Positions 18,383-40,340 of a DNA stretch of 58,873 nucleotides are shown here, piece after piece. Numbering within the stretch: position 1 is the first letter of the stretch; the number at the start of each line of letters is the position of its first letter. The position numbers were made by a program, and so were the translations under genes. Where the stretch lies: positions 1-58,873 of IMG/VR virus record IMGVR_UViG_3300047560_003072, one strand, 5' to 3'. Below the pieces are notes generated by a model. The model was not told where the DNA came from, searched no databases, and saw only the letters and a list, made by a program, of their open reading frames with translations. The DNA is from a virus.

Positions 18383-18985
18383 TTCAATATCCGCTACCAT
18401 ATCTTCCCACATACCTTCATGCGGAATGATGTAAGCAAGTGTTAGACGCTCTTCATGCTCAGCATTAGCACAATGCCAGTAGATTCTGTCTGTTTCTTTC
18501 CACGAGCCGTAGTAACCAACCTTACAAGTCCATCCTGGAGTATCGTTAATTGTAACAATCTCTTTCGTGATTGGATCTTGGTAACGGAAATATCCAGTAC
18601 CTTTTTCAGACCATGAGATAAGAATGTTATAACCTGGGGCGTTTGCGTTGTGGTGCCATCCCATGTAACCCGTTGCGGGATATAACATCTTAACAGCGTT
18701 GTTACGAGAACCGGACCACGCAAGCAGATCTTCATCTAACTTCTTCAGCGCGTCTTTCAATCCAGGCGGTGTCCATCGTGCAAGATCAACACCGTGTGTC
18801 TTTTCCGGAAATCCATCAACAGGTTTGTTTTGCATGAATTTCAAATACTCATCACCGCAAGCATATTCAGCCGTTATGTCTTTCTTCTGATACGGCCAGC
18901 CTGATCTATCTACAGCAAGCATGCTGCTCAGAAAGGTGTTGATAATTTTTAAAAGCTGTTTGTTTCTAATTTGGATGGTCTTCAT
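18371..18985 (-). CDS. 2OG-Fe(II) oxygenase-like protein
   Basis: This 204-aa protein has the segment MLYPATGYMGWHHNANAPGY (residues ~101-120), then NILISWSEKGTGYFRY and, near the C-terminus, HCANAEHEERLTLAYIIP. This is the layout of small double-stranded beta-helix (2-oxoglutarate, iron) oxygenases of T4-like phages. It has an early His-x-Asn/Asp pair, a distal His and an Arg before the last strand. Asn in place of the usual Asp after the first metal His is a deviation to note. Family members hydroxylate proteins, nucleotides or small molecules; the substrate here is unknown. The upstream glycosyltransferase gene overlaps it by one base. Confidence 0.6.
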   Translation of the reverse strand: MKTIQIRNKQLLKIINTFLSSMLAVDRSGWPYQKKDITAEYACGDEYLKFMQNKPVDGFPEKTHGVDLARWTPPGLKDALKKLDEDLLAWSGSRNNAVKMLYPATGYMGWHHNANAPGYNILISWSEKGTGYFRYQDPITKEIVTINDTPGWTCKVGYYGSWKETDRIYWHCANAEHEERLTLAYIIPHEGMWEDMVADIESEG

Positions 18986-19683
18986 TATTTGCCTACTCTA
19001 TGTGGAAGTGTGTGGTGATAAAAAACGATAGGATTCTTCGCTTCGTAAGAACGGTATCCGTTTACGAAATTCCAACGACCATCATCATCGAATACTTGTA
19101 CGTTAATTGGTAGCTTATCTTCATTCATAAGTTTCCACAACGTAAATTGGTCCCACTGAGCAAATGCTTCGGGAATAACGTTCTCTGGGTAGGGCCATGG
19201 ATCGATACGTTGTTTCCGGTAGTCTTGCCACCATCTTTCCATAAAATTCAACGTGCGCTCGTTGCTGCGATAGAGAAAGAAGCCTCCGTGATAGACCATC
19301 TCTCCTGTTGACCATTTATGCATTTTGCCATTGTATGGTCGTATTTTTGTGATTAGAATATCACATTCTTCGGGAATCTCGTCCCAAATATTTTGCACAT
19401 CCGTGTGCATACATTCCATGTCCGCATCAACATAACACGTCAATTCCGTATAAGGAGTACGTGAAAGAGCATACAGCTTTGCTCTTATATGATGTGGGAC
19501 ATCTTCACAAATCACTCGATTGAAGACATCATGATCGACATCGTCAATGAATTGTGGAGTTGTAAAAAGCGTGATGTCAGCATCCGGATAGAACTCCTTG
19601 ATGCTCGCCGCTGCAAAATTAGCTCCCTGTACATATCCTTGATGTACGGAAGCCACAATCAAAAAACCATTACGAACTGTCAT
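18985..19683 (-). CDS. GT-A glycosyltransferase
   Basis: This 232-aa protein starts with MTVRNGFLIVASVHQGYVQG, the first GT-A strand. CYVDADMECMHTDVQNIWDE (residues ~87-106) contains the DAD metal-binding motif of GT8-like enzymes. Conserved-looking GGFFLYRSNERTLNFMERW and FYHHTLPHRVGK follow. It is likely to transfer a sugar from a nucleotide sugar. With the second glycosyltransferase, sulfotransferase-like, methyltransferase-like and oxygenase-like genes it forms a cassette between two fibre gene groups. Glycosylation of phage fibres or alteration of the host surface are both possible. Confidence 0.75.
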   Translation of the reverse strand: MTVRNGFLIVASVHQGYVQGANFAAASIKEFYPDADITLFTTPQFIDDVDHDVFNRVICEDVPHHIRAKLYALSRTPYTELTCYVDADMECMHTDVQNIWDEIPEECDILITKIRPYNGKMHKWSTGEMVYHGGFFLYRSNERTLNFMERWWQDYRKQRIDPWPYPENVIPEAFAQWDQFTLWKLMNEDKLPINVQVFDDDGRWNFVNGYRSYEAKNPIVFYHHTLPHRVGK

Positions 19684-24284: not shown

Positions 24285-26327
24285 TTACGCCGTTCTTACA
24301 TACAGCGTATACGTGGTTGGTGTTGTAGTATTTAGGACAGTCAAACCAGTGTATGCTCCTGTAAATGCTCCCGTGAACACTTTTGAGAATGCGCCTGTGT
24401 AAGCGCCAGTGTAGAAAGAAATATACGATCCAGTGAATGCACCAGTAAATACACGACTGTATGTACCAGAGAAGTATCCAATTGTTGAGTATACTCCCGT
24501 GTACGCGCCGGAATAAAATCCCGAATATGCGCCAGTGTACAAGCCGGTAAACGCACCCGTGTATATGCCAGTGTATGTTGTGTTGTATATACCCGAAAAT
24601 ACTCGCGAATACACACCTGTGAAGCCGCCTGAATATTGACCTGTGAATGCTCGAGAGTATGCACCCGTATATGCAGCAGTGTATGCACCTGTAAAGTTTA
24701 CGCTGCGTAAAGTCACATTAATATGCGTAAAAGTTTGTGCGTATGATCCGGAATACAAACCGGTGTAGTTACCGACATATGTTGTTGTAAATGCACCAAC
24801 GAAGCTAGCAAAACCGCTGACGTATGCTCCCGAAAAATATCCTATACCGGTTCCACCACCACCGACGTAGTAGTGAGCATACCCTCCAACAAACACGCCT
24901 GCATAAATGTTTGGTGTTGAAGCGGAATAATTACCAACATATACACCCGTAAAGTAATGTGGGTGACCGTTGTAATAACCATTCAGGTAGTTATCAGTAT
25001 AATAACCAACATATGAGTTATCATACCACGACCAACCTATGTTTAGGTAATCTGTATAATACTGACGAGAGAATGCTTGTATTCGTGTTGGACCTTGTGA
25101 TATACGTGTGTATACACCCGAGTACTGGCCAGTGAATGCTCCCGTATAGTTACCAATATATGTACCAGAGAATGCACCGGTGTACGTACCGGCATAAGTT
25201 GTATTGTATGCTCCAGTAAATGCACCCGTATAAACGCCAGTAAAAATGTTACCATATGCACCGGTAAATGCACCCGTATAATTTCCTGCGTATCCCGTTA
25301 CATAACCACCAGTGAATGACTGGCCATACGTTCCGGAATATGAGCCTGCATAATATCCTATGTACGCACCAACGTAGTTACCTGAATAGTTTAAAATCGA
25401 TTGGTAGATACCTGAGAACGCGCCCGTAAATCCACCTGAATATTGACCAGTATAAGCCGTTGCATAGTTACCAATATAGGTACCAGAGAATGCACCTGTG
25501 AATGATTGTTGATATGTGCCCGAATACGAAATACCAGACAAATCATTAATTTTGTCAATGTAAGCACCACGACCGACCCATGTTCCTGTTCCTGGAGCAG
25601 CCGTACCAACATTATATGTACCTACACCTGTGGTACGATAATATTCACCAAGGAATGGAGCAAGAGCGGTGATATCCGCCTGCGTCATTTCAGTCAACTG
25701 ATTGTTGACGAGCTTTAATGGTAGGTTTGTACTTGCGTTGTTAGCTGTCCATGCATCTGTACGTTGATACAGTCTATACACTTCAAGAATATTAGTGCCT
25801 GCTGAATCATAGTGCTGCTGGAAAAAATAGTTGTTTCTGTCTGTCCATGTTCCTGCCGGTAACGAATCACTCGGTGCAAGTAGGTAGTATGATCCACGAC
25901 CACCTGTAAGCATCGAAGAAGCAGAAACAATGTATGGCCAGAAGAAGCTGTTCATGTCATCATTTGACATTTCACGAACTTGATATTCACCACCAGAGAG
26001 AACGTAATGCACAGGGCGCGCCTGTGTGGTCATTGTTTGTGTACTATACGTTTGATACAGTGTATGTGTGTCGTATGATACAGATGCTGGGTGAACACCT
26101 ACTCCAGCCGTATAACCATCAAGAGCAGCTCCACGAGAAACGTAATTTGCAACCGAAGGATATTGGTCAAAACGAATCCAGTTACCCGTATTTTCAATAA
26201 GGGTATTGTTAGCAAGTACTGTGTTAATTATAAGAGGAATGACGAGATCTTGGAGCTCCGCATCAGACATCTCCTGCAAACCAACCGCTACTGCTCCACT
26301 ATATTTTGCTCGGAGTGGTCTTCCCAT
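24285..26327 (-). CDS. Tetrapeptide-repeat fibre protein, paralogue (680 aa)
   Basis: This has the same architecture as the neighbouring 1376-aa protein. Residues 1-260 hold three copies of the N-terminal domain (LQEMSDAELQD, VREMSNDDMNS, LTEMTQADITA; each later followed by G-x-Y and GTW). The Y/F-x-G-x repeats begin at ~268, and a C-terminal block LTVLNTTTP...LYVRTA mirrors the LWVRTA end of its neighbour. The repeats are shorter and broken by inserts around residues 405-515 (YYTDYLNIGWSWYDNSYVG, GGGGTGIGYF) and near 535. The gene lies 18 bases upstream of its paralogue. It is a likely second fibre of the same type, produced by tandem duplication and divergence. Confidence 0.75.
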   Translation of the reverse strand: MGRPLRAKYSGAVAVGLQEMSDAELQDLVIPLIINTVLANNTLIENTGNWIRFDQYPSVANYVSRGAALDGYTAGVGVHPASVSYDTHTLYQTYSTQTMTTQARPVHYVLSGGEYQVREMSNDDMNSFFWPYIVSASSMLTGGRGSYYLLAPSDSLPAGTWTDRNNYFFQQHYDSAGTNILEVYRLYQRTDAWTANNASTNLPLKLVNNQLTEMTQADITALAPFLGEYYRTTGVGTYNVGTAAPGTGTWVGRGAYIDKINDLSGISYSGTYQQSFTGAFSGTYIGNYATAYTGQYSGGFTGAFSGIYQSILNYSGNYVGAYIGYYAGSYSGTYGQSFTGGYVTGYAGNYTGAFTGAYGNIFTGVYTGAFTGAYNTTYAGTYTGAFSGTYIGNYTGAFTGQYSGVYTRISQGPTRIQAFSRQYYTDYLNIGWSWYDNSYVGYYTDNYLNGYYNGHPHYFTGVYVGNYSASTPNIYAGVFVGGYAHYYVGGGGTGIGYFSGAYVSGFASFVGAFTTTYVGNYTGLYSGSYAQTFTHINVTLRSVNFTGAYTAAYTGAYSRAFTGQYSGGFTGVYSRVFSGIYNTTYTGIYTGAFTGLYTGAYSGFYSGAYTGVYSTIGYFSGTYSRVFTGAFTGSYISFYTGAYTGAFSKVFTGAFTGAYTGLTVLNTTTPTTYTLYVRTA
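24351..25526 (-). repeat. Shorter Y/F-x-G-x coding repeat region
   Basis: Degenerate 12-base units coding aromatic-x-Gly-x, with non-repeat islands at about 24690-24740 and 24780-25115. It is more diverged than the 20199-23516 array. Confidence 0.8.
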
Positions 26328-30176: not shown

Positions 30177-30390
30177 TTGTTTTTCCGTTTATTAATTGTT
30201 GCAGTAGCTGCTTTATCTCTTTCATATCCTGCTGCAATGTGGCAACTTCTTGAGCAGTGCGTTGCAATTGCAACACTCTTTCTCTCTCCATTCTGAATTG
30301 AGCATAGCCAGCTTTATCTATATTTAGAATAGCGGTCGAACGCTTGTCTCTGACAAAACCAGGATCTTCCGTTTTAATTATTTCGTTCAT
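30157..30390 (-). CDS. Small helical protein (77 aa), unknown function
   Basis: This protein has a charged N-terminus followed by an uninterrupted helix with coiled-coil character (MERERVLQLQRTAQEVATLQ, then KEIKQLLQQLI). It overlaps the baseplate gene upstream by 4 bases (ATGA) and the 875-aa fibre gene downstream by 20 bases. Its placement suggests a trimerisation, attachment or folding partner of a fibre. No family is recognised. Confidence 0.5.
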   Translation of the reverse strand: MNEIIKTEDPGFVRDKRSTAILNIDKAGYAQFRMERERVLQLQRTAQEVATLQQDMKEIKQLLQQLINGKTNGTSDI

Positions 30391-32426
30391 GCTGAGACAG
30401 CGATTGCACGAACATCGTCGACGTATGGAACCTTGATACCATCTTCAGAAAGAAGAACGATCTTGAGAGCAAAAGAATCGAAGCCTTTATGTATGGCTCT
30501 TGCTTTGTTGTAATACGTTACAATGTTTTGTGATTGAATATCAAGGAATGCGCTGCTTGGACGATCAATAACGTCAACTTTCAAACCTGTTCCAACCAAG
30601 CTAGCATTTGCGCCTGTACCTGTTGCAAGAGTAAACGTTGTCGTGTTAGATTCAACGACAGTATCCACAAAATATGTGCTTGGAATGATAGGTGAGTACA
30701 CACGAACCAAATTACCATTTGCAATCTCTGTACTTACTGATCCCGATGTTCCCGTAACAACGGTACATGCAGAGAGAGTCGTGAATGATCCTGTTGCCGT
30801 AGTTCCTAGTCTATAGAAAGGAATTGAATATTCAAGTTCTTTACGGTCGTAAATGTTTGTGGGGTTGCTATAGTCTGTATTTGCTGTGACTAAAGAAAGC
30901 TCAGTCCAATCTTTCAAGTCCATAGACTCAAGATCTTCCGAATTACGCAGTCGTGCGTATACAATAATGTTTGTATTAGCTGGTCTGTAAGCACGAACAT
31001 ATATTTTCAGATCTTCGGCAATCTGATCATCGGAAAGGGGAATTACTTTGGAAATATAGCGTGTTTTTGCAGATCCAAATCCCGTATACTCATTTGTCGT
31101 TGTGTTGTTTAATTCATAACGCTCAACAAACAAGTCCATATTCTCTTCACGGACATATGGTGAAACGTATGGATTAGTCGTCGTAAAGGTAATCAAACCA
31201 CGGAAAGCATCTTCTGTTGCGGCCGTTGTTACTTTGTTTGACTGTGAGAAAATTACAGGATCATATTGGTTAATTAGCAGTCTATCACCAAGCGTTGCCG
31301 TAACAGCATTTGTATCGCTGAATTGATAGGCAGCATTAGCAAAGTTTAAAGATGCTGTTACTGCTGTTCCTGCAGGTGTTTTAATGTCAAAGTTTGGAAC
31401 AAGACCATTAACAGCGTAATCCAAAACTGTTGTTATGAGTGCTGTTGCTTGTGAATCGACACCGTAAATTCTTTCTCCTGCGCTGAGATAAACAGTCGTA
31501 TTAGCTGTTGAATCTTGTAGGATTACATGATCGGAAAGACCGTTAGCATCAAACAACTTTGCAGTTACTGTTTTGAAATAGTTACCTGACGTATTTGAAA
31601 ATGATGGTACAACATCAACAACCATAGATGTTGCATTTGTAACGGAAACAACTGTACGTATTTCTGTGTTGCCTGGAGTACCATCTGTAATGGCAAACTT
31701 ATCACCAACAAGAAGTGTTGTGTTGAATGACGTACCTGTACCTGTCAATGTTGTACTGTTTTCCGAAATAGCCACTGTACCGGTTGCGTTTGCGCTTAAG
31801 CGATACACATCCTCACCACCCTTGAAATCACCCACCATGCTATTAACACGGAGGATTTCATATTTGCGGTTATAAACTCTAAATGTTTCCGACGTCTTTG
31901 AAAATTTTGCAACTTGTAGATTGAAGGAAAGGTCCGCATCAAGGACAGGTGTCAAATCTCTACCGTTTGTAATTGTGTAGAAGGCACCATCAACTTTACC
32001 AGAAGTTACTTGTGTCTTTGTTGTTGTGCCAAAAACGTTTTCACCAGCTTTGTTATACCACAATTTGAAGTCAGGATCACTACCATCAAACTTAATCAGA
32101 AAAGCATACGAACGAGCTGTCGAAAGAGGAACAGGCTGTCTGAAAGTAAAAGTTGTTGCTGTAGCACCTGACGCATCGGTAAGAATATTTTCATACTCCA
32201 CACGACCAGCAAACGTATGATGATACAGATCTAGGTTAGGAGATCCATTATCGTTTGTCATTGCGAGGTAGACGGACGCACCTGGATTTGTAATCCCAGA
32301 TTTTGTCTTTCCTGAAACAGGTTTTCCAAAGAAATACAAGTCGACGCTCGTGACAAAAATGCTATCAGCACCCTCTACTGCATCTTTATCAAGATAGAAT
32401 GTTTGAGCTAAATCAAAACCAGCCAT
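30387..32426 (-). CDS. Baseplate or tail appendage structural protein (679 aa)
   Basis: The start MAGFDLAQTFYLDKDAVEGA followed by IFVTSVDLYFFGKPVSGKT is a module seen in large baseplate-associated proteins of marine T4-like phages. The C-terminus (HKGFDSFALKIVLLSEDGIK ... VRAIAVSA) is its usual partner motif. The middle is beta-rich with TGTGTSFNTTLLVGDKFAI. It may be one half of what is a single protein in relatives, the other half being the 1505-aa DUF4815-type protein. A link between wedge and fibres is inferred, not shown. Confidence 0.6.
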   Translation of the reverse strand: MAGFDLAQTFYLDKDAVEGADSIFVTSVDLYFFGKPVSGKTKSGITNPGASVYLAMTNDNGSPNLDLYHHTFAGRVEYENILTDASGATATTFTFRQPVPLSTARSYAFLIKFDGSDPDFKLWYNKAGENVFGTTTKTQVTSGKVDGAFYTITNGRDLTPVLDADLSFNLQVAKFSKTSETFRVYNRKYEILRVNSMVGDFKGGEDVYRLSANATGTVAISENSTTLTGTGTSFNTTLLVGDKFAITDGTPGNTEIRTVVSVTNATSMVVDVVPSFSNTSGNYFKTVTAKLFDANGLSDHVILQDSTANTTVYLSAGERIYGVDSQATALITTVLDYAVNGLVPNFDIKTPAGTAVTASLNFANAAYQFSDTNAVTATLGDRLLINQYDPVIFSQSNKVTTAATEDAFRGLITFTTTNPYVSPYVREENMDLFVERYELNNTTTNEYTGFGSAKTRYISKVIPLSDDQIAEDLKIYVRAYRPANTNIIVYARLRNSEDLESMDLKDWTELSLVTANTDYSNPTNIYDRKELEYSIPFYRLGTTATGSFTTLSACTVVTGTSGSVSTEIANGNLVRVYSPIIPSTYFVDTVVESNTTTFTLATGTGANASLVGTGLKVDVIDRPSSAFLDIQSQNIVTYYNKARAIHKGFDSFALKIVLLSEDGIKVPYVDDVRAIAVSA

Positions 32427-32442
32427 TTGTTATCCTTAAACC

Positions 32443-32865
32443 TTATTGCTTGACTTCTACGTATTCGCTTTCAGGCGGATACAGAACTTGTATACGAATG
32501 TGACTACGGAAGCAAGAAAGACTCGTCGTCATAAAATCATCCGAAAGTGTTTGTGAATTTGTGGTTGTAAGAGCAACTTCCTTATTACCTGCAATAAGGT
32601 TTGAAGCAGCTTGCGATTGCTCAAGAGTTGTCTTATCTCCGCTTAAACCAGAATCATACAGATAGTCAAACGTCATTTTTCCATTGCTATCTGTTCTAAG
32701 AGGTTCACCCGCTTTGCCGCCAAGAGGCTTTAGCTTCGATGCTGGAACAAGCTGTCTTTCAAAATAAAAATAGTGTGTTGTAAGTGGCAGCAAACCTGAA
32801 ACGTTAAACGTGAACGTTTGCTCTCTTGCTACAAAATATACACGAGGATTAGTCTTCGTTGGCAT
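32443..32865 (-). CDS. Small baseplate-region structural protein (140 aa)
   Basis: This beta-rich protein contains VSGLLPLTTHYFYFERQLVP and a GKMTFDYLYDSG segment, a composition common to phage tail proteins. It overlaps the P450 gene by 17 bases at its start and lies 16 bases before the 679-aa gene. No enzyme motif or named family is recognised. A tail role is inferred from neighbours. Confidence 0.5.
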   Translation of the reverse strand: MPTKTNPRVYFVAREQTFTFNVSGLLPLTTHYFYFERQLVPASKLKPLGGKAGEPLRTDSNGKMTFDYLYDSGLSGDKTTLEQSQAASNLIAGNKEVALTTTNSQTLSDDFMTTSLSCFRSHIRIQVLYPPESEYVEVKQ

Positions 32866-34093
32866 GCTTAACCTTTTTCAGCTTAAAGAAAATCTTGTTT
32901 CCTTTTGGTGTTAACTCTATTCGTCTCTTAATAATTGGTTCTTGTTCTAAAACAACAACAAAATTCTTACATATCATTTGCATAACATCAGGACCAACCT
33001 TCATTGTGAGACCGGAGCCAGGACATCCTCGCTCACCTCCACCGAAAGGTATATAACTTCCCTTCTCTATGCTTGATAAACCTTTTGCAAAGCGCATTGG
33101 ATCGAATAACTCTGGACTCTTCCAATTCTGCTCTGACATATGCGTATCACGCACACTAACTAAATCTGTTGAACTCTTCCAAAAGTGAAATGGACATTTC
33201 GACTTCTGCTTTGGTTCATATGATAACAAATGGAATGGCGGGTACATTCTTAACACTTCCATAAACGCCCAACGAGCATACGCTCCATCGTTTGCTATTC
33301 TTGCTGCATCGTGTCGATTTTTCGAAACGACATACAGCATCCACATTACAGCGCCAGCAAGTGAGTTACCATTTATGATTAGCATTCTGATTTCACCCTT
33401 TACATCTTCTTGTGTAAGGATACCCTCTTGCTCAGCCTGCTTCAAATCATAAAACAAACTACCTTTTTTACCAACCGCCTTTGTATAAACCAACTCCGCT
33501 AACATATCCAGGTTCTCATTGCGTTTCTTCAACCCTGGCGCAAATACATCTTTAACAAACTTTGGTACAAACGGAACATAATTCAAAAAAAACATACGTG
33601 CCGTTGAAACATCCGCCCCATGTTCTTTATGGGAAAGTCCAATTCTATTTAGCTCTTGCTGTGCATCATCTGGCAACTTTGCACCGAGCAGATTACTCAA
33701 CAGACTGTTTCCAATAATCCCACCCACAACACCAATAGGATTAAACGTTTCACCGTTTTCTGAAATAGTCGATACAGTTTCAAACAACTGCTTTGTAACT
33801 TGATCAGAAATAATTTCGTATATTGAAGCCTTTAAGTGCTTCTTCATAAACTGACGTTTAATTTTAGCCTTTTCATCATCTTGCGAAACAGATGAGTGAT
33901 TCGCACCCATATGTTTAAGCATTCTACGTGAAAATCCCGACCGTGTTATATCTCTCCTTGTGTACAGCTCACTAATAACTTTTGGATTGGATGTAACCAT
34001 TATTTCCTTGCCAACAGCTCTAAAACGAACTGTTTGGCTAGGAATTTTTGAAAGATCAGTTAGTATCTTTTTGAATTTTGTTTTGTAGGTCAT
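32849..34093 (-). CDS. Cytochrome P450 (phage-encoded)
   Basis: This 414-aa protein (ATG at 34093, AAAGGA 13 bases upstream; a TTG 24 bases earlier is less likely) has all the main P450 landmarks in the right order. They are a helix-C-like KRQFMKKHLK, helix I LIINGNSLAGAVMWMLY (~238-254), the ExxR motif EVLR (E279, R282), a PERF-like DPMRF (~331-335) and the heme loop FGGGERGCPG with thiolate ligand C357. The usual acid-alcohol pair in helix I is replaced by Asn243-Ser244. There is no N-terminal membrane anchor, so it is probably soluble. It needs a redox partner, and none is seen here. Its start lies inside the baseplate gene upstream and its end inside the 140-aa gene, so it is probably expressed with late tail genes. 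The substrate is unknown. Confidence 0.93.
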   Translation of the reverse strand: MTYKTKFKKILTDLSKIPSQTVRFRAVGKEIMVTSNPKVISELYTRRDITRSGFSRRMLKHMGANHSSVSQDDEKAKIKRQFMKKHLKASIYEIISDQVTKQLFETVSTISENGETFNPIGVVGGIIGNSLLSNLLGAKLPDDAQQELNRIGLSHKEHGADVSTARMFFLNYVPFVPKFVKDVFAPGLKKRNENLDMLAELVYTKAVGKKGSLFYDLKQAEQEGILTQEDVKGEIRMLIINGNSLAGAVMWMLYVVSKNRHDAARIANDGAYARWAFMEVLRMYPPFHLLSYEPKQKSKCPFHFWKSSTDLVSVRDTHMSEQNWKSPELFDPMRFAKGLSSIEKGSYIPFGGGERGCPGSGLTMKVGPDVMQMICKNFVVVLEQEPIIKRRIELTPKGNKIFFKLKKVKHANED

Positions 34094-37000
34094 TATATTG
34101 TATCGATCCTTTGACAATCTTGTATTTCAAGAATGCCTTTACAGCAGCAAATTTTACCGCGTAAGGAACTTTCTCACCTTTTGTTGAAGTTACATCACTA
34201 TACAATTGATTGACAATGTCTCTATCATTGTACTGCGTTGCATGCTTGTCGATTAATTTCAATGTTGCTAACTTGTATAGCTTTTTTGCTTGTTCATTTT
34301 GACCAAGTTTAACAAGCTGCGTCAGTGGTTTAATAGTTTCACTGTAGAAGTCATCCCATTTTGTTTTACGCTCGGCAATAATCGGACCAACAACATAATA
34401 GAATTTCTTAGCCTGATCATCGCGCTTGGAAGTCATGTGAACGTCACGTAGATAACGTGCAAGATGCAATTCCTCACAGTCATCATCCAATCCCAAGTAT
34501 TGTACAGTAGCTGTTGTTAGGAAACAAGAGCCACTACCGCTCGAGCCGCCAGTACTTCCGGAAGTATCACCAGACATACCTGCACCACCGTAATCAGGCG
34601 CTGGTGGTGCGGGATCTGGAACAATTGTCACTTCACCGCGGGCCATGATTGAGAATGACGACGGCTCAACTGTACCTTCACCAACGAATTGTGTACGTTG
34701 ACCGTCTGTACCAATAACACTACTCTTAATGCTCTGGTTAATCAAGATAGTAGAAGCAAAAGGCAACATCAATGTATCACCATTAATAATACCTGCTGCT
34801 GTGTTTGCATGAGTTGTATCAAAGCGAGCTTCAAAGTTGATTTGCTTTGTAGCTGGTTTCAAAAAGCCTTTTTGCTGATCAATAGTTGCAGCAAACTCAG
34901 GATGTGTTACATCGACCTTTGTGTAATCATCAAATGGTTCGACGAAAAAGCCATTTTTGAAACGACTCGTTGTTGGTGTAATACCACTAGGAATAACAAG
35001 ATCTTTAATCGCTGATTCGACTTGATTCAAGGATGTTGTATATTCAACAGCTTTCAAACGACGATCCAACGAACCAATATCAGACATTGTGTAACGTCTT
35101 GGCTGAGATTCAATCGACTCTTTCATTGTGATAGATCTGATCGATGATTGTACCATCTTTCTGTTAACACTACCACGTGTACTTGTTGTTCTCTTTGCAG
35201 CAAATTCAACACTGTCTGCATTTAGCGAAATAGGGAATGAAGGATATGGAGGAACCTTCAATACTTCAAGTGTAACAGCGCCAGCCGGCTCTTTTGGAGG
35301 AACTGGATTTGTTGGATGTGGGATACCTTCAAGCACTTCAAAAGAAGAGTCTTTACGGACAATTACTCTATCAATACGCGAATCGTAGTAATTGATTGTA
35401 AACGAAACAAGTGAATCAGGAGCAGGGAAATATTGATCATCACCACTCAGAGCAAATGTGTTTGCTGGGTTCACCGTAGCACCTGCAACAGTTGTCGCAA
35501 TGTTAGCTGTGTTTGATCCATATGGGCGGAAGTCGATTACATCACGAAGATCGTAATAATCACCCTTGGTAGTAACAGTTTCAGGCATTTCCAAAACGTT
35601 AATGCCGGCGTTATTATTTGCACTTAGTGTAGTCAGGTTAGCTGTTGCGTTGATCGTATAAGAACCATACGTAAAGAAACCTTCCGCGCCACCTGTTGTA
35701 AATGCATCAACCTTAACAAGGATAAATGTATTAGTATTGACACCTGGTTGTGCGCCTGGGTTCAAAATCAACTTAGCGGAACGATAAGCATTCTCATCAT
35801 CATTTACATCAACGGAGAAATACTTGGTAATGTCTGTGTTACTCGTTGTAACAGCAGATGAGTTACCTAGGTAAACGTTTTTCAAACGAATGACACCTGG
35901 AATACCTAGGTACCAAGGACCAGTGTTGCCGCCTGCGTTATTGCTTGTATGGATTTTAACATACAATTCACGGTTAACAGTCTTCGTTACAGGAGATGCG
36001 TTTGTCTTCTTCTTGTTGTATACTGCAATTGCTCCGACTTGCGGTGTAATTGCTTTGTTAATATCAATTGTCAGTGTTGTAGCACCAGCGTTTAGGTTTG
36101 CTGTTCTTGTCGAACGCACAATATCGATTGGATACAGAGCAGGGAAGAAAGGAACAAGGTTACCTGTAACAGCCAACGCAGCATTTGCATAAAGTGTCAT
36201 TGAGGTGTTGCTTGCAACTGATTTAATTTGTGCAACAACGTTTGCTGTTGTATTTGCAATCTTAACCCAATCGCCTGCCTGATATTCCGTCAGCCAATTT
36301 GTGGACGTTCCTGTTAATGTCGGGCTCGTCGTGCTGGTGGTTGTTGATCCGTTGGTATTCGACTGAGCTTGTGTGTTTGCAATCGGGAAAAGAATGATGT
36401 CCTGTTTTTGTGCTGCAGACAATGAACCGCCGGCAGTGTATGGGAACGTCTCACCAGTACCCAAAGGACCAATTGTCAGTTGACCGGTTGTGGAAAGCTG
36501 CAGTGTTGATGGAGAAACTGTTCTGTACGTGTATGTAATATCAGTCAACGATGCTACACCTTCGCGGCCAACAGGGAAGATCATCTTATCGTTTTGAACA
36601 TCGACAAGAGAAGCAATGTTGGATGCTGTAGTTGCATCATATGTCAAAACAACGTCTGCAACACCATCATATGTGCTATCATAATATACAGCACGAACTT
36701 GACGGAATGAATAACCCTGTTTCATGTTGATATCAAACAAGTACATACGATAAACGCACTCTGGTGTACCTGGTGTACCTGAATGAATTACCAACGAACG
36801 CATACGCGCTGTACCGATTTCAGAGCCTGGAGCAGTAATCGATCCCGTACCAACCGTCATTGTTGATCCGTATTGTTTTGCTGCACTGCGCAAACTTACA
36901 GTTGCACCTGCTTTGAAATCGAACTGACCTGCAAGCTCTTTAACCAAAACATAATTACCGTAGTTAATGGTAATGTTCTGGTTCGGTGACGTTACAGTAT

Positions 37001-38573
37001 CTGTTGAACGTCTGATGTCAAGGTAGTTGTTGTAAGTCGTTTGTACGCGATAACCACTAATGTAAGCCAATCCTGGATCAATAATGACTTGAGCATGAGT
37101 TGCATTAGCAGTTGATTTCTCTTTTGTTGCAACGCGGAACGGATCAGCAACAAAATTACCTTGCGATTCGCGTGTACGGCGAGCAAACTCATCAGCTAGA
37201 TTGGAATAGATTGTTGTACGATTCTCTTTGTATGGGAATCCTTCTTTCCATTCTGCCAAAGCAAAAAAGTCGACGTTTGCGGCAGCCTCATCCAACGTAA
37301 GTGTAGTAAGCGTTGGTGTTAGTTGCAGACGGTCTGCACCAGGCGCTGTATAGTTTGTTGTGTTGGAAGCGTTGTCATACAACGAGTCATCTTGCGCAGC
37401 GGTAACAACGGTTTCTGGTGTTGTAAAACCAACTGCAATGTTGTCTGGTGTTGTTGTGTACTTGTCAACAACAATAACTTGAGGATCTACCTTTAGAAAG
37501 TATCCCTTTTGATAGATGATACCTTCTGATACACCAAATGCGTAGCCTGTACCAATAGCATTAACATCGCTGTTTGCAACAGTAATAATGGTTTTATAGT
37601 TGACAGGAGTGATTGTTAAAGCTGGAGTGCCGTAAGTAGCCGTAGCATTAGCTGACTGAATCGTAACATGGGGTAAGAATGTGTAGTCGGAACCACCATC
37701 TTGGATGGAGATTAACTGAACAATACCTAATGTGTCTGTAGTAATTAGACCCTTTGCACCACTACCAATTAGAGATGAAACGTTTGCAGTTGCTCCGCTG
37801 ATGTTACCACTAATGTTATAGCCAGGTGTAAATGTCCATGCTGTTGCGTTGACAGATGTATTGACAAGATCTGTAGAACGTGGTTTAACACTCAACACAA
37901 TTGTGTTTGCAATTGCTGTTGTATTGATTGTGTTAATGACAGCTTTTGCACCTGTCGTGGCTTGTGTGATTGTTTCACCTTGCTGGAAAGCAATTGAGTT
38001 ACCCGTGATCGTAAGAGCACTCATAACGACGAGTGAGTCGGAATTTGAAAACCCCTGACCACCACTATCAACAGACATTTTGAACAGCTCGTAGTTTTTA
38101 CTGAAGACTGTTAGCTGTTGACTTGGACTGAAAGCAGAATAAACAGTATTTCCGTTAGCAGGATCAGGATCCGAGCTGTTAACATATTGAACGAAGAGTG
38201 TTTTTAGGTCAGGCGATTTTGATTCCAGACCGTCTTCATAGTTAACAATACGTCCTTGTAGGTTCAGATTACTCTTGATGAAATATCCAACATATGCGGA
38301 AGGAATAGAAGGTTCACCATCTACTTGTGTATCAAGAATCTTTACATAGCTGTAAGTTGGTAAATACGAAAAGTTAACGCCACTTATGATTGTGCCTGAT
38401 TTGAAAACGTGATTACCAAAACGTTCGATTTGGTTTTGCAGCGTCGTTTGAAGCTGGTTCAACTCTCGGGTCTGAACAGCAACGCCCGGCTTAAAAAGAA
38501 TCTTGTAGTATTCTTTTGCCTGATCGTAATCGTCAAAATATGGGCTTGCGCTGTAAGAATTTTCTAATGGCAT
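34056..38573 (-). CDS. DUF4815-type baseplate protein with CFI-box-like tail (1505 aa)
   Basis: The N-terminus (YFDDYDQAKEYYKILFKPGV, AVQTRELNQLQTTLQNQIER) is the DUF4815 signature of large baseplate or tail-fibre-connector proteins in T4-like phages. The central ~1,000 residues are beta-rich, and RFKNGFFVEPFDDYTKVD near residue 1225 is also typical. After a Gly/Ser linker (~1335-1355), a C-terminal ~145-residue domain begins GSCFLTTATVQYLGLDDDCE and continues LHLARYLRDVHM. This resembles the CFI-box type domain found at phage fibre ends and in some secreted proteins. The last 38 bases overlap the P450 gene. A peripheral baseplate role (T4 gp9/gp10 equivalent) is inferred. Confidence 0.8.
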   Translation of the reverse strand: MPLENSYSASPYFDDYDQAKEYYKILFKPGVAVQTRELNQLQTTLQNQIERFGNHVFKSGTIISGVNFSYLPTYSYVKILDTQVDGEPSIPSAYVGYFIKSNLNLQGRIVNYEDGLESKSPDLKTLFVQYVNSSDPDPANGNTVYSAFSPSQQLTVFSKNYELFKMSVDSGGQGFSNSDSLVVMSALTITGNSIAFQQGETITQATTGAKAVINTINTTAIANTIVLSVKPRSTDLVNTSVNATAWTFTPGYNISGNISGATANVSSLIGSGAKGLITTDTLGIVQLISIQDGGSDYTFLPHVTIQSANATATYGTPALTITPVNYKTIITVANSDVNAIGTGYAFGVSEGIIYQKGYFLKVDPQVIVVDKYTTTPDNIAVGFTTPETVVTAAQDDSLYDNASNTTNYTAPGADRLQLTPTLTTLTLDEAAANVDFFALAEWKEGFPYKENRTTIYSNLADEFARRTRESQGNFVADPFRVATKEKSTANATHAQVIIDPGLAYISGYRVQTTYNNYLDIRRSTDTVTSPNQNITINYGNYVLVKELAGQFDFKAGATVSLRSAAKQYGSTMTVGTGSITAPGSEIGTARMRSLVIHSGTPGTPECVYRMYLFDINMKQGYSFRQVRAVYYDSTYDGVADVVLTYDATTASNIASLVDVQNDKMIFPVGREGVASLTDITYTYRTVSPSTLQLSTTGQLTIGPLGTGETFPYTAGGSLSAAQKQDIILFPIANTQAQSNTNGSTTTSTTSPTLTGTSTNWLTEYQAGDWVKIANTTANVVAQIKSVASNTSMTLYANAALAVTGNLVPFFPALYPIDIVRSTRTANLNAGATTLTIDINKAITPQVGAIAVYNKKKTNASPVTKTVNRELYVKIHTSNNAGGNTGPWYLGIPGVIRLKNVYLGNSSAVTTSNTDITKYFSVDVNDDENAYRSAKLILNPGAQPGVNTNTFILVKVDAFTTGGAEGFFTYGSYTINATANLTTLSANNNAGINVLEMPETVTTKGDYYDLRDVIDFRPYGSNTANIATTVAGATVNPANTFALSGDDQYFPAPDSLVSFTINYYDSRIDRVIVRKDSSFEVLEGIPHPTNPVPPKEPAGAVTLEVLKVPPYPSFPISLNADSVEFAAKRTTSTRGSVNRKMVQSSIRSITMKESIESQPRRYTMSDIGSLDRRLKAVEYTTSLNQVESAIKDLVIPSGITPTTSRFKNGFFVEPFDDYTKVDVTHPEFAATIDQQKGFLKPATKQINFEARFDTTHANTAAGIINGDTLMLPFASTILINQSIKSSVIGTDGQRTQFVGEGTVEPSSFSIMARGEVTIVPDPAPPAPDYGGAGMSGDTSGSTGGSSGSGSCFLTTATVQYLGLDDDCEELHLARYLRDVHMTSKRDDQAKKFYYVVGPIIAERKTKWDDFYSETIKPLTQLVKLGQNEQAKKLYKLATLKLIDKHATQYNDRDIVNQLYSDVTSTKGEKVPYAVKFAAVKAFLKYKIVKGSIQYNDLQNKIQKDTN

Positions 38574-38582
38574 GTTTGTCTC

Positions 38583-40340
38583 TTAAAACTGCAGAATGAT
38601 TTTAATTGTTTCTGATTGACTTGCAGAACGTGTGATAGGACTTTCGTTCTCAAGGTATACTACTTCACCAGAACCAACAACTAAGTCTGGATGATACGCA
38701 TAATCAAGTCTCGCGACAGCCTCACTTACCGTACCAATAATCGTATTACCGGTATTTAGTGTGCCTCTGGAGTGCGTGATGTAAACATTTGTCGATGTAT
38801 TGCTGTGGAAAATTGCGTTAGCAATTTGTAGATCTGTTTGATAGATTTTTTCATCAGGAACAAATGTACCAGCTACAGGTGTGAATGTGAATCGCTGACG
38901 TTGATCAAATGTGTTGAAATTCTTTGACTGGCCATTGATTTCATACGAAGTGACGTTACCTGATGCTGTTATTCCCTGAGAAACAGTCTTTGATGTAACG
39001 AACACACCATTAACATTTGTCAATGACAATTTGTTCGTATCAAAAGCAGTAACATATCCTGTTGCCAAAGAATCAGATTGCGTAACTAGGTTACCAACAC
39101 CAAAAGCACCGCTCAATGAAGATAATGTCAATACGACGTTTGCAAACAAAGGATCCTTGATAATACCGACTGTTCTGTAATCGTTTGATACAGGAATTGT
39201 ACCTGTCTCACTTGTTTCAAACTTAACACTCATTGCAAGAGCACGAGCGCCAAGTTCATATTCTGGGTTTGAACCATGGCCACCTTTTGGACCAAGAATA
39301 ACAGACATTGAAGCTGCATTCTGCACGCCACCTGTGTTACCAACGACAGAAGCGGAAGCATATGTGTAACCGCTTCCTCTGCTAATAATTTCAACCTGTG
39401 AAACACTATTGGTTGAGTATGAGTTTACTTTTGCGCGAGCAATAGCTCCACTTCCATCACCAGTAATCAATACGTAAGGTGTTATTTCATATGTGGATGT
39501 TGTATCGGGGTTTGTACTAAAAGCAGAATCGATCTCAATAGTCTTTGAGTTACCAATAACAGTGTAATTAACGATTCTTCTACCTTGACCACTACCGGTA
39601 CCGTTTGTAATGTAAATGAAGCTACCGTTATAGAAGTTATTTGATGCACTTGCTGTATTGGCAATGTTGTATTTCAGCGGATTACCACCAACACGAAGGT
39701 CTGTCGAAATGAATGTACCTTGCAGGTATGTGTTGTAATGAGAACCAGGCGTATTAACAACAACAACGTCAATTGCACCTGAAACAGCATTACCAACAAC
39801 TTCATTATTTGCTAGGACCGGCATATAGCTAGCTGTTGCAAATTTATTGAATGTTGTTGAGTCCATTGAATACATATACTTCCAGACATAACCGTCTGAT
39901 GTACTATAAAACTCATCATCAGGAGCTGTTTGCGTAACGTCAGGCGCAACGGTGGAGGCAACATTACCGTTGTTATCTAAACATTTAAAGACGTGAAACG
40001 AAGATGTTGCATCAACAGCGACGTAGTATGCTTTTTCCGAAAGATCTTCGGTGCTTCTGTAAGCTGCGTATTTTGTATTTGATGTCCAATTGTAACGTGG
40101 GGCTACAGGCATCACGTCGCTGGAACCTACACGCTTACCAAACACCATTTCATCATATGCGGTATACAATGTATCTTGAACGCTGTTTGTAATCGGATCG
40201 ATATTTGAGTCACCGGTGCTGTATTCCGTATGTCTTCCAGCAAAAACATAGTAGACGCTGTTAGCCGTTTCGCTGATCGATTCGCGAAATTGATTAACGT
40301 TGTGAAGACGAAAGTAGTTGGTAATTAGTTGTGTTGCCAT
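38583..40340 (-). CDS. 8: Baseplate wedge protein gp8-like
   Basis: This 585-aa protein has gp8 features in the first ~180 residues: TNYFRLHNVNQFRESISE, VYYVFAGRHTEYSTGD, DEMVFGKRVGSSDVMP with RYNW, then YVAVDATSSFHVFKCLDNNG and DGYVWKYMYSMD. It is much longer than T4 gp8 (334 aa), the extra ~250 residues being beta-rich C-terminal repeats. gp8 dimers lie on the outside of the T4 wedge. It follows gp7 and precedes the DUF4815 protein. An AATAAATA late-like element lies 24 bases upstream of the start. Confidence 0.85.
   Translation of the reverse strand: MATQLITNYFRLHNVNQFRESISETANSVYYVFAGRHTEYSTGDSNIDPITNSVQDTLYTAYDEMVFGKRVGSSDVMPVAPRYNWTSNTKYAAYRSTEDLSEKAYYVAVDATSSFHVFKCLDNNGNVASTVAPDVTQTAPDDEFYSTSDGYVWKYMYSMDSTTFNKFATASYMPVLANNEVVGNAVSGAIDVVVVNTPGSHYNTYLQGTFISTDLRVGGNPLKYNIANTASASNNFYNGSFIYITNGTGSGQGRRIVNYTVIGNSKTIEIDSAFSTNPDTTSTYEITPYVLITGDGSGAIARAKVNSYSTNSVSQVEIISRGSGYTYASASVVGNTGGVQNAASMSVILGPKGGHGSNPEYELGARALAMSVKFETSETGTIPVSNDYRTVGIIKDPLFANVVLTLSSLSGAFGVGNLVTQSDSLATGYVTAFDTNKLSLTNVNGVFVTSKTVSQGITASGNVTSYEINGQSKNFNTFDQRQRFTFTPVAGTFVPDEKIYQTDLQIANAIFHSNTSTNVYITHSRGTLNTGNTIIGTVSEAVARLDYAYHPDLVVGSGEVVYLENESPITRSASQSETIKIILQF

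What the first reader, a model, noticed from the sequence alone, without database searches (positions are those of the whole stretch)
32849..34093. Complete-looking cytochrome P450 inside a phage tail operon
The heme loop FGGGERGCPG, the ExxR motif and a PERF-like motif are in order in a full-length 414-aa frame. P450s are very rare in phages. The gene overlaps both flanking structural genes, so it is not a passenger next to a mobile element but is wired into late tail expression. That raises the question whether it modifies host lipids or metabolites late in infection, or is packed in the virion.
Basis: partly seen in the sequence, partly recalled or inferred. Interest (0 to 1): 0.9.

Follow-up and report, generated by a model that had tools for sequence, protein, structure and literature searches.

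The report
Phage P450 paired with tail domain
A tailed phage carries an intact cytochrome P450 (a heme enzyme that oxidises other molecules) that travels between phages together with a special end-piece of a tail protein, which suggests, but does not yet prove, that phages use this enzyme to chemically finish a part of their own virion.

Summary
The ORF is on the minus strand (34093 to 32849, 414 aa), passes Pfam PF00067 (76 bits, E 3e-21), folds confidently as a P450 (pLDDT 90, pTM 0.91) and overlaps both neighbours in a T4-type baseplate/tail operon. What is new is its context. Two more phage contigs (IMG/VR) carry intact P450s of the same clade (41% and 32% identity; SH-aLRT 100), far from every bacterial P450 found (at most about 24% over the full length). 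In all three, the gene directly upstream, which the P450 overlaps by 23-50 nt, ends in a Gly-linker plus a ~155-aa "CFLTTA" domain related to the CFI-box-CTERM domain. In two phages it sits on a DUF4815 tail-operon protein, in the third on an unrelated Gly-rich protein. None of 20 relatives with a readable DUF4815 C-terminus has it; they carry Hint-like domains, other tails or nothing. The pair looks like a mobile two-gene cassette in a polymorphic slot. Best explanation: the P450 oxidatively modifies the CFI-box domain of its partner tail protein late in infection. Only the pairing is shown; activity and substrate are inferred. Rivals: host-metabolite oxidation, or a non-catalytic tail-protein partner.

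The parts
32849..34093 (-). Cytochrome P450 gene, 414 aa
   Evidence: PF00067 76 bits; AF2 pLDDT 90; Foldseek; orthologues L145 and L146
33017..33046 (-). Heme-binding loop FGGGERGCPG (Cys357)
   Evidence: Cys kept in all three phage P450s
33248..33259 (-). ExxR motif EVLR
   Evidence: kept in all three
33089..33106 (-). PERF-like motif FDPMRF
33362..33376 (-). I-helix oxygen-activation region INGNS (Ser244 in place of the usual Thr)
   Evidence: Thr in L145 and L146
33182..33199 (-). KCPFHF motif shared by the three phage P450s
   Evidence: low-confidence loop in the AF2 model
34056..38573 (-). DUF4815 / phrog_358 tail-operon protein, 1505 aa; carrier of the CFI-box-like domain; overlaps the P450 by 38 nt
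   Evidence: Pfam DUF4815, phrog_358
34059..34526 (-). CFI-box-like C-terminal domain (residues 1350-1505), partner of the P450
   Evidence: 45-48% identical to the domains upstream of the other two phage P450s; CFI_box_CTERM match of the L145 copy, 24 bits, below cutoff 40
32443..32865 (-). orf140, conserved downstream neighbour; overlaps the P450 by 17 nt; present in relatives without the cassette
30387..32426 (-). orf679, phrog_358-like tail-region protein closing the slot
38583..40340 (-). gp8-like baseplate wedge protein opening the conserved block
   Evidence: PF09215

Best explanation
The ORF is an intact cytochrome P450 that forms a mobile two-part cassette with a CFI-box-like C-terminal domain of the tail-operon protein encoded just upstream. 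The two are probably expressed together late, with coupled translation because the genes overlap. The P450 most likely takes heme and electrons from the host (its ferredoxin or flavodoxin system) and oxidises the CFI-box domain of its partner protein. The likely chemistry is a cross-link or hydroxylation at conserved Cys or aromatic residues (candidates Cys1366, Trp1406, Phe1409, Tyr1410), which would mature a virion part. Shown: P450 family, predicted fold and motifs; gene overlap; co-occurrence of domain and P450 in three contigs, on two unrelated carrier proteins; a separate phage P450 clade with conserved catalytic motifs. Inferred: catalytic activity, electron donors, substrate, chemistry, timing, presence of the carrier in the virion, and effect on the virion.
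For: All three phage P450s of the clade follow directly and overlap a gene ending in the CFI-box-like domain; none of the 20 relatives whose DUF4815 C-terminus could be read has the domain, and none of the 30 related contigs has a P450. The carrier differs: DUF4815 protein in the window and L146, Gly-rich 525-aa protein in L145. Backbone tree: window sister to Hint-bearing L008 (99), L146 elsewhere, so the state changed at least twice; the P450 tree joins window with L145 (SH-aLRT 90). Catalytic motifs kept at 26-41% identity. A second Cys (window 1366) is in 3/3 P450-linked domains and 0/7 unlinked ones. P450s that cross-link genetically linked ribosomal peptides exist (ApyO, PMC11117315), as an analogy.
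Against: Only three examples, all metagenomic. CFI-like domains occur in a podovirus, a Clostridioides phage and bacteria with no P450 in the stretch read, so the domain as such does not need a P450. No redox partner was recognised among the window ORFs scanned, though the window is a fragment. Sequence similarity to ApyO is not specific: ordinary bacterial P450s score higher. The CFI-domain model is of modest confidence, and no complex could be modelled.
Confidence: 0.42

Rival explanations
1. Auxiliary metabolic enzyme: the P450 oxidises a host lipid, fatty acid, terpenoid or other small molecule during infection; its position beside the CFI domain reflects co-capture in a cargo slot.
For: Most P450s act on small molecules (established knowledge). 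Nearest sequences and folds are small-molecule P450s such as CYP175A1, BM3, CYP4B1. The slot also holds an unrelated 180-aa ORF in L008, so it does accept cargo.
Against: The P450 was found only beside the CFI-like domain, on two unrelated carrier proteins; nothing predicts a metabolite; no pathway partner gene was recognised in the window.
Confidence: 0.25
2. Non-catalytic partner: the P450 protein serves as an assembly factor (chaperone) or is docked onto the tail through the CFI domain, like other genes just downstream of tail-fibre genes that move with the fibre's C-terminal domain.
For: Position and overlap directly downstream of the carrier gene, and joint transfer with its C-terminal domain, resemble fibre/chaperone pairs (established knowledge; for example the Alteromonas phage fibre chaperones, PMC7289586 and PMC10579305 as listed). 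Some P450 homologues are known to be non-catalytic activators (NCBIfam TIGR04515).
Against: The heme Cys, ExxR and an I-helix Ser/Thr are kept in all three despite 26-41% identity, which a purely structural role would not require.
Confidence: 0.2
3. Hitchhiking: domain and P450 have no functional link and travel together only because they are adjacent in a recombination hotspot.
For: Only three examples; neighbouring genes in a recombination hotspot move together; CFI-like domains occur alone elsewhere.
Against: The pair stayed together over deep divergence (26-41% identity) while the backbone and even the carrier protein changed, and the second Cys tracks P450 linkage.
Confidence: 0.1

Closest known systems
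Cytochrome P450 superfamily (PF00067); nearest sequences include Thermus CYP175A-type and Campylobacter/Helicobacter P450s
   Same: Fold, heme-Cys loop, ExxR, PERF-like motif, length
   Different: At most about 24% identity over the full length to bacterial members found; Tyr where about 90% of the alignment has Arg292; KCPFHF motif; overlaps a tail gene
ApyO-type P450s that cross-link ribosomal peptides (NCBIfam NF050147)
   Same: A P450 genetically linked to a ribosomal substrate candidate with aromatic residues (by analogy)
   Different: 39-59 bits against a cutoff of 525, and ordinary bacterial P450s score 119-190; proposed substrate is a large tail-operon protein, not a short precursor peptide
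CFI-box-CTERM domain (NCBIfam NF041770)
   Same: Gly-rich linker, CF[IL]xTA start, RD, aromatic then Pro pattern
   Different: Below the curated cutoff; extra C-terminal helices instead of the hydrophobic tail of the bacterial copies; second Cys; P450 partner
Tail-fibre/chaperone pairs of tailed phages
   Same: A gene overlapping or just after a tail gene that moves together with that protein's C-terminal domain
   Different: The partner is a P450, not a known chaperone family
Previously reported viral P450s (giant viruses, Ranid herpesvirus 3, Mycobacterium phage Adler; as cited in PMC9405906)
   Same: A P450 gene in a virus genome
   Different: That text mentions no link to a virion protein; no match of our proteins to an isolated phage in INPHARED apart from one doubtful record

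Membership tests
Cytochrome P450 superfamily | Profile match over the curated cutoff | tested here: met
   76 bits, cutoff 22.8; L145 66.9 and L146 67.9 bits
Cytochrome P450 superfamily | Heme-thiolate loop FxxGxRxCxG and ExxR | tested here: met
   FGGGERGCPG and EVLR; Cys and ExxR kept in all three (L146 ends the loop in Ala)
Cytochrome P450 superfamily | P450 fold | tested here: met
   AF2 pLDDT 90.4, pTM 0.91; Foldseek TM about 0.68-0.79 to solved P450s
Cytochrome P450 superfamily | I-helix acid/alcohol pair | tested here: inconclusive
   Alcohol kept (Ser/Thr/Thr), preceding acid replaced (Asn in the window)
Cytochrome P450 superfamily | 450-nm CO-difference spectrum and catalysis | not testable with these tools
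   Needs expression
A previously known CYP family found here | More than 40% identity to a member (own knowledge of the naming rule) | tested here: not met
ApyO RiPP P450 (NF050147) | Score over the curated cutoff | tested here: not met
   39 and 59 bits against 525; control shows the match is unspecific
CFI-box-CTERM (NF041770), for the partner domain | Score over the curated cutoff | tested here: not met
   L145 24 bits against 40; window and L146 copies no match
CFI-box-CTERM (NF041770), for the partner domain | C-terminal CF[IL]xTA domain after a Gly-rich linker | tested here: met
Tail-fibre/chaperone-type pair | Adjacent overlapping gene co-transferred with the C-terminal domain | tested here: met
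   (three contigs)
Tail-fibre/chaperone-type pair | Needed for folding or assembly of the tail protein | not testable with these tools
   Needs expression or a deletion phage

The most novel reading that the evidence does not exclude
A phage-encoded P450 installs an oxidative post-translational modification (for instance a Cys-aromatic or aromatic-aromatic cross-link) on the C-terminal CFI-box-like domain of a virion tail protein, as one of several interchangeable C-terminal modules (CFI+P450, Hint-like, others). I know of no precedent for P450-matured virion proteins.
Probability: 0.35. Interest if true: 0.92.

Novelty: new variant of a known kind. Interest (0 to 1): 0.78.

Why it matters
P450s in phages are almost unknown, and none met here has a proven job. 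A P450 that moves with a domain of a tail-operon protein gives a concrete, testable substrate: the intact mass of one protein domain with and without the enzyme. If true, phages use heme-dependent oxidation to finish their tails, a new kind of virion maturation and a possible source of protein cross-linking enzymes. It could also shed light on the CFI-box domain, for which the held library has no paper.

Tried and rejected
Close relatives by single-protein scans of IMG/VR and GTDB: none. Alignment scans that used ExxR patterns returned only two bacterial-type P450s on other viral contigs (L039, L040) or nothing. A heme-loop DNA pattern found L128/L145, and the alignment of that pair found L146. 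Plasmid P450s: 22-33% identity over parts only. A special relation to ApyO was rejected after a control. The 'Pseudomonas phage Y1' P450 sits among bacterial-looking genes in an unverified record, so it was not counted as a phage P450. Full-length CFI domain in 349 proteobacterial genomes: none (no positive control). Bacterial CFI-boxes: no P450 in the roughly 3-kb loci held. CFI-domain fold search: no match; the model is only pLDDT 69. Codon usage gives no sign of recent import. Misassembly rejected: same gene order in an independent metagenome contig (L146).

Full report
Observation. The ORF is real and lies on the minus strand, 34093 to 32849, 414 aa. It matches Pfam PF00067 with 76 bits over nearly the whole profile, and the PDB sequence search returns P450s. 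The heme loop FGGGERGCPG, ExxR and a PERF-like motif are in order. AlphaFold2 gives a confident P450 fold (pLDDT 90.4, pTM 0.91), and Foldseek finds P450 structures. The gene overlaps its upstream neighbour by 38 nt and its downstream neighbour by 17 nt. The window is a 58.9-kb linear IMG/VR record of a T4-type myovirus: portal, sheath, tube, terminase, neck and baseplate genes are present.

Slot. Thirty related viral contigs were collected with the gp8 protein. Where they reach far enough they share the order gp8 - DUF4815 protein - variable slot - orf140 - orf679 (in the two most distant, L030 and L031, orf140 was not recognised). None has a P450 anywhere on its contig. The C-terminus of the DUF4815 protein is polymorphic. 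Of the 20 relatives in which I could read it, five have Hint-like domains (three were tested with Pfam, all matching below the gathering cutoffs), two a domain starting ICTxxY, and thirteen neither. In L008 an extra 180-aa ORF also sits in the slot. One PHROG family (phrog_358, 2056 positions) covers parts of both the DUF4815 protein and orf679, so the slot lies where other phages appear to have one long protein.

Relatives of the P450. A heme-loop DNA pattern found a second phage P450 (L128/L145, contig IMGVR_UViG_3300012347_000112), 41% identical end to end. An alignment of the two found a third (L146, IMGVR_UViG_3300042569_002653), 32% identical to the window. The three form one clade (SH-aLRT 100) on a long stem; bacterial P450s found are at most about 24% identical over the full length. 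They keep Cys, ExxR and an I-helix Ser/Thr. They share a KCPFHF motif and a Tyr where about 90% of the alignment has Arg. INPHARED holds no relative apart from one record that looks like bacterial DNA.

The partner. In all three phages the gene just upstream, overlapping by 23-50 nt, ends in a Gly-rich linker and a domain of about 155 aa beginning CFLTTATV. The three domains are 45-48% identical. In L146 the carrier is the DUF4815 protein in the same slot; in L145 it is an unrelated Gly-rich 525-aa protein among tail-fibre-like genes. A profile of the domain found nothing in the other loci held at that point. The L145 copy matches NCBIfam CFI_box_CTERM below its cutoff (24 against 40 bits). 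Bacterial CFI-boxes sit near the C-terminus of mostly very large proteins, followed by a hydrophobic stretch, with no P450 in the loci read. Two phage records have CFI-like domains without a neighbouring P450 in the stretch read (L155, L156). Only the P450-linked copies have a second Cys (window Cys1366; 3/3 against 0/7) and, in a stretch the others lack, a Phe-Tyr pair at 1409-1410. This comparison was made after seeing the data and rests on three linked copies.

History. On the backbone tree the window is sister to the Hint-bearing L008 (99) and L146 branches elsewhere, so the CFI+P450 state changed at least twice; a third placement is on another protein. The P450 tree joins the window with L145 rather than with L146 (SH-aLRT 90; long branches make this unsure). 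This is what a mobile two-part cassette would give. Three examples are few, and the comparison set was collected with gp8 and not with the CFI domain.

Mechanism. The simplest reading is that the P450 acts on the domain it accompanies. It would oxidise Cys or aromatic residues of the protein's C-terminus, using host heme and host electron donors, during late expression. P450s that modify genetically linked ribosomal peptides exist (ApyO; PMC11117315), but the sequence similarity to ApyO is not specific, so this is an analogy only. Activity, substrate and effect are inferred. Rivals are a small-molecule role, a non-catalytic assembly role, and hitchhiking.

Known or new. Membership in the P450 superfamily is met. 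By the usual 40% rule (own knowledge) the phage proteins do not fall into any bacterial family found here. Virus and phage P450s are known (PMC9405906 names giant viruses, a herpesvirus and Mycobacterium phage Adler). The pairing with a tail-operon protein domain is, as far as I could find, new; most subscription-journal papers could not be searched.

Noticed in passing
L003, L004, L007, L008, L013 (C-terminus of the DUF4815 protein): Hint-like (intein-related) domains at the same C-terminal position as the CFI-box-like domain; in L008 the Hint sequence seems to continue in another frame.
   Followed up: partly
L008 9886-10428: A 180-aa ORF in the same slot, matching phrog_1128 (labelled enoyl-CoA hydratase/carnithine racemase-like) but, to my eye, resembling an NlpC/P60-type hydrolase; no Pfam match.
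   Followed up: partly
L018 10498-14889, L025 11308-15801, L006 15831-16634: A third type of C-terminal domain starting with a CT(x)xxY-like motif; in L006 a similar stretch is fused to the orf140 homologue instead.
   Followed up: no
L155 912-3896 (MW202701.1, podovirus ctYwJ313): A protein with a CFI-box-like C-terminus after a poly-Gly linker, with no P450 in the 7-kb stretch read.
   Followed up: partly
L156 2167-3228 (CP069348.1, Clostridioides phage pCD1602_4): A typical bacterial-type CFI-box in a phage-labelled record.
   Followed up: partly
L147 (OQ572403.1, 'Pseudomonas phage Y1'): An unverified phage record whose P450 lies among bacterial-looking genes; probably bacterial DNA mislabelled as phage.
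   Followed up: partly
window 34056-38573 and 30387-32426: Both genes match different parts of one 2056-position PHROG family (phrog_358), suggesting a split or fusion at the slot.
   Followed up: partly
window 24285-26327: A 680-aa protein with many FTGAY-type short repeats; no firm family.
   Followed up: no
window 18985-19683: A possible sugar transferase (Nucleotid_trans, 22.6 bits, just above cutoff 22).
   Followed up: no
L039 1-1374 and L040 933-2318: Bacterial-type P450s near the ends of viral contigs with phage genes, perhaps host DNA beside prophages.
   Followed up: partly
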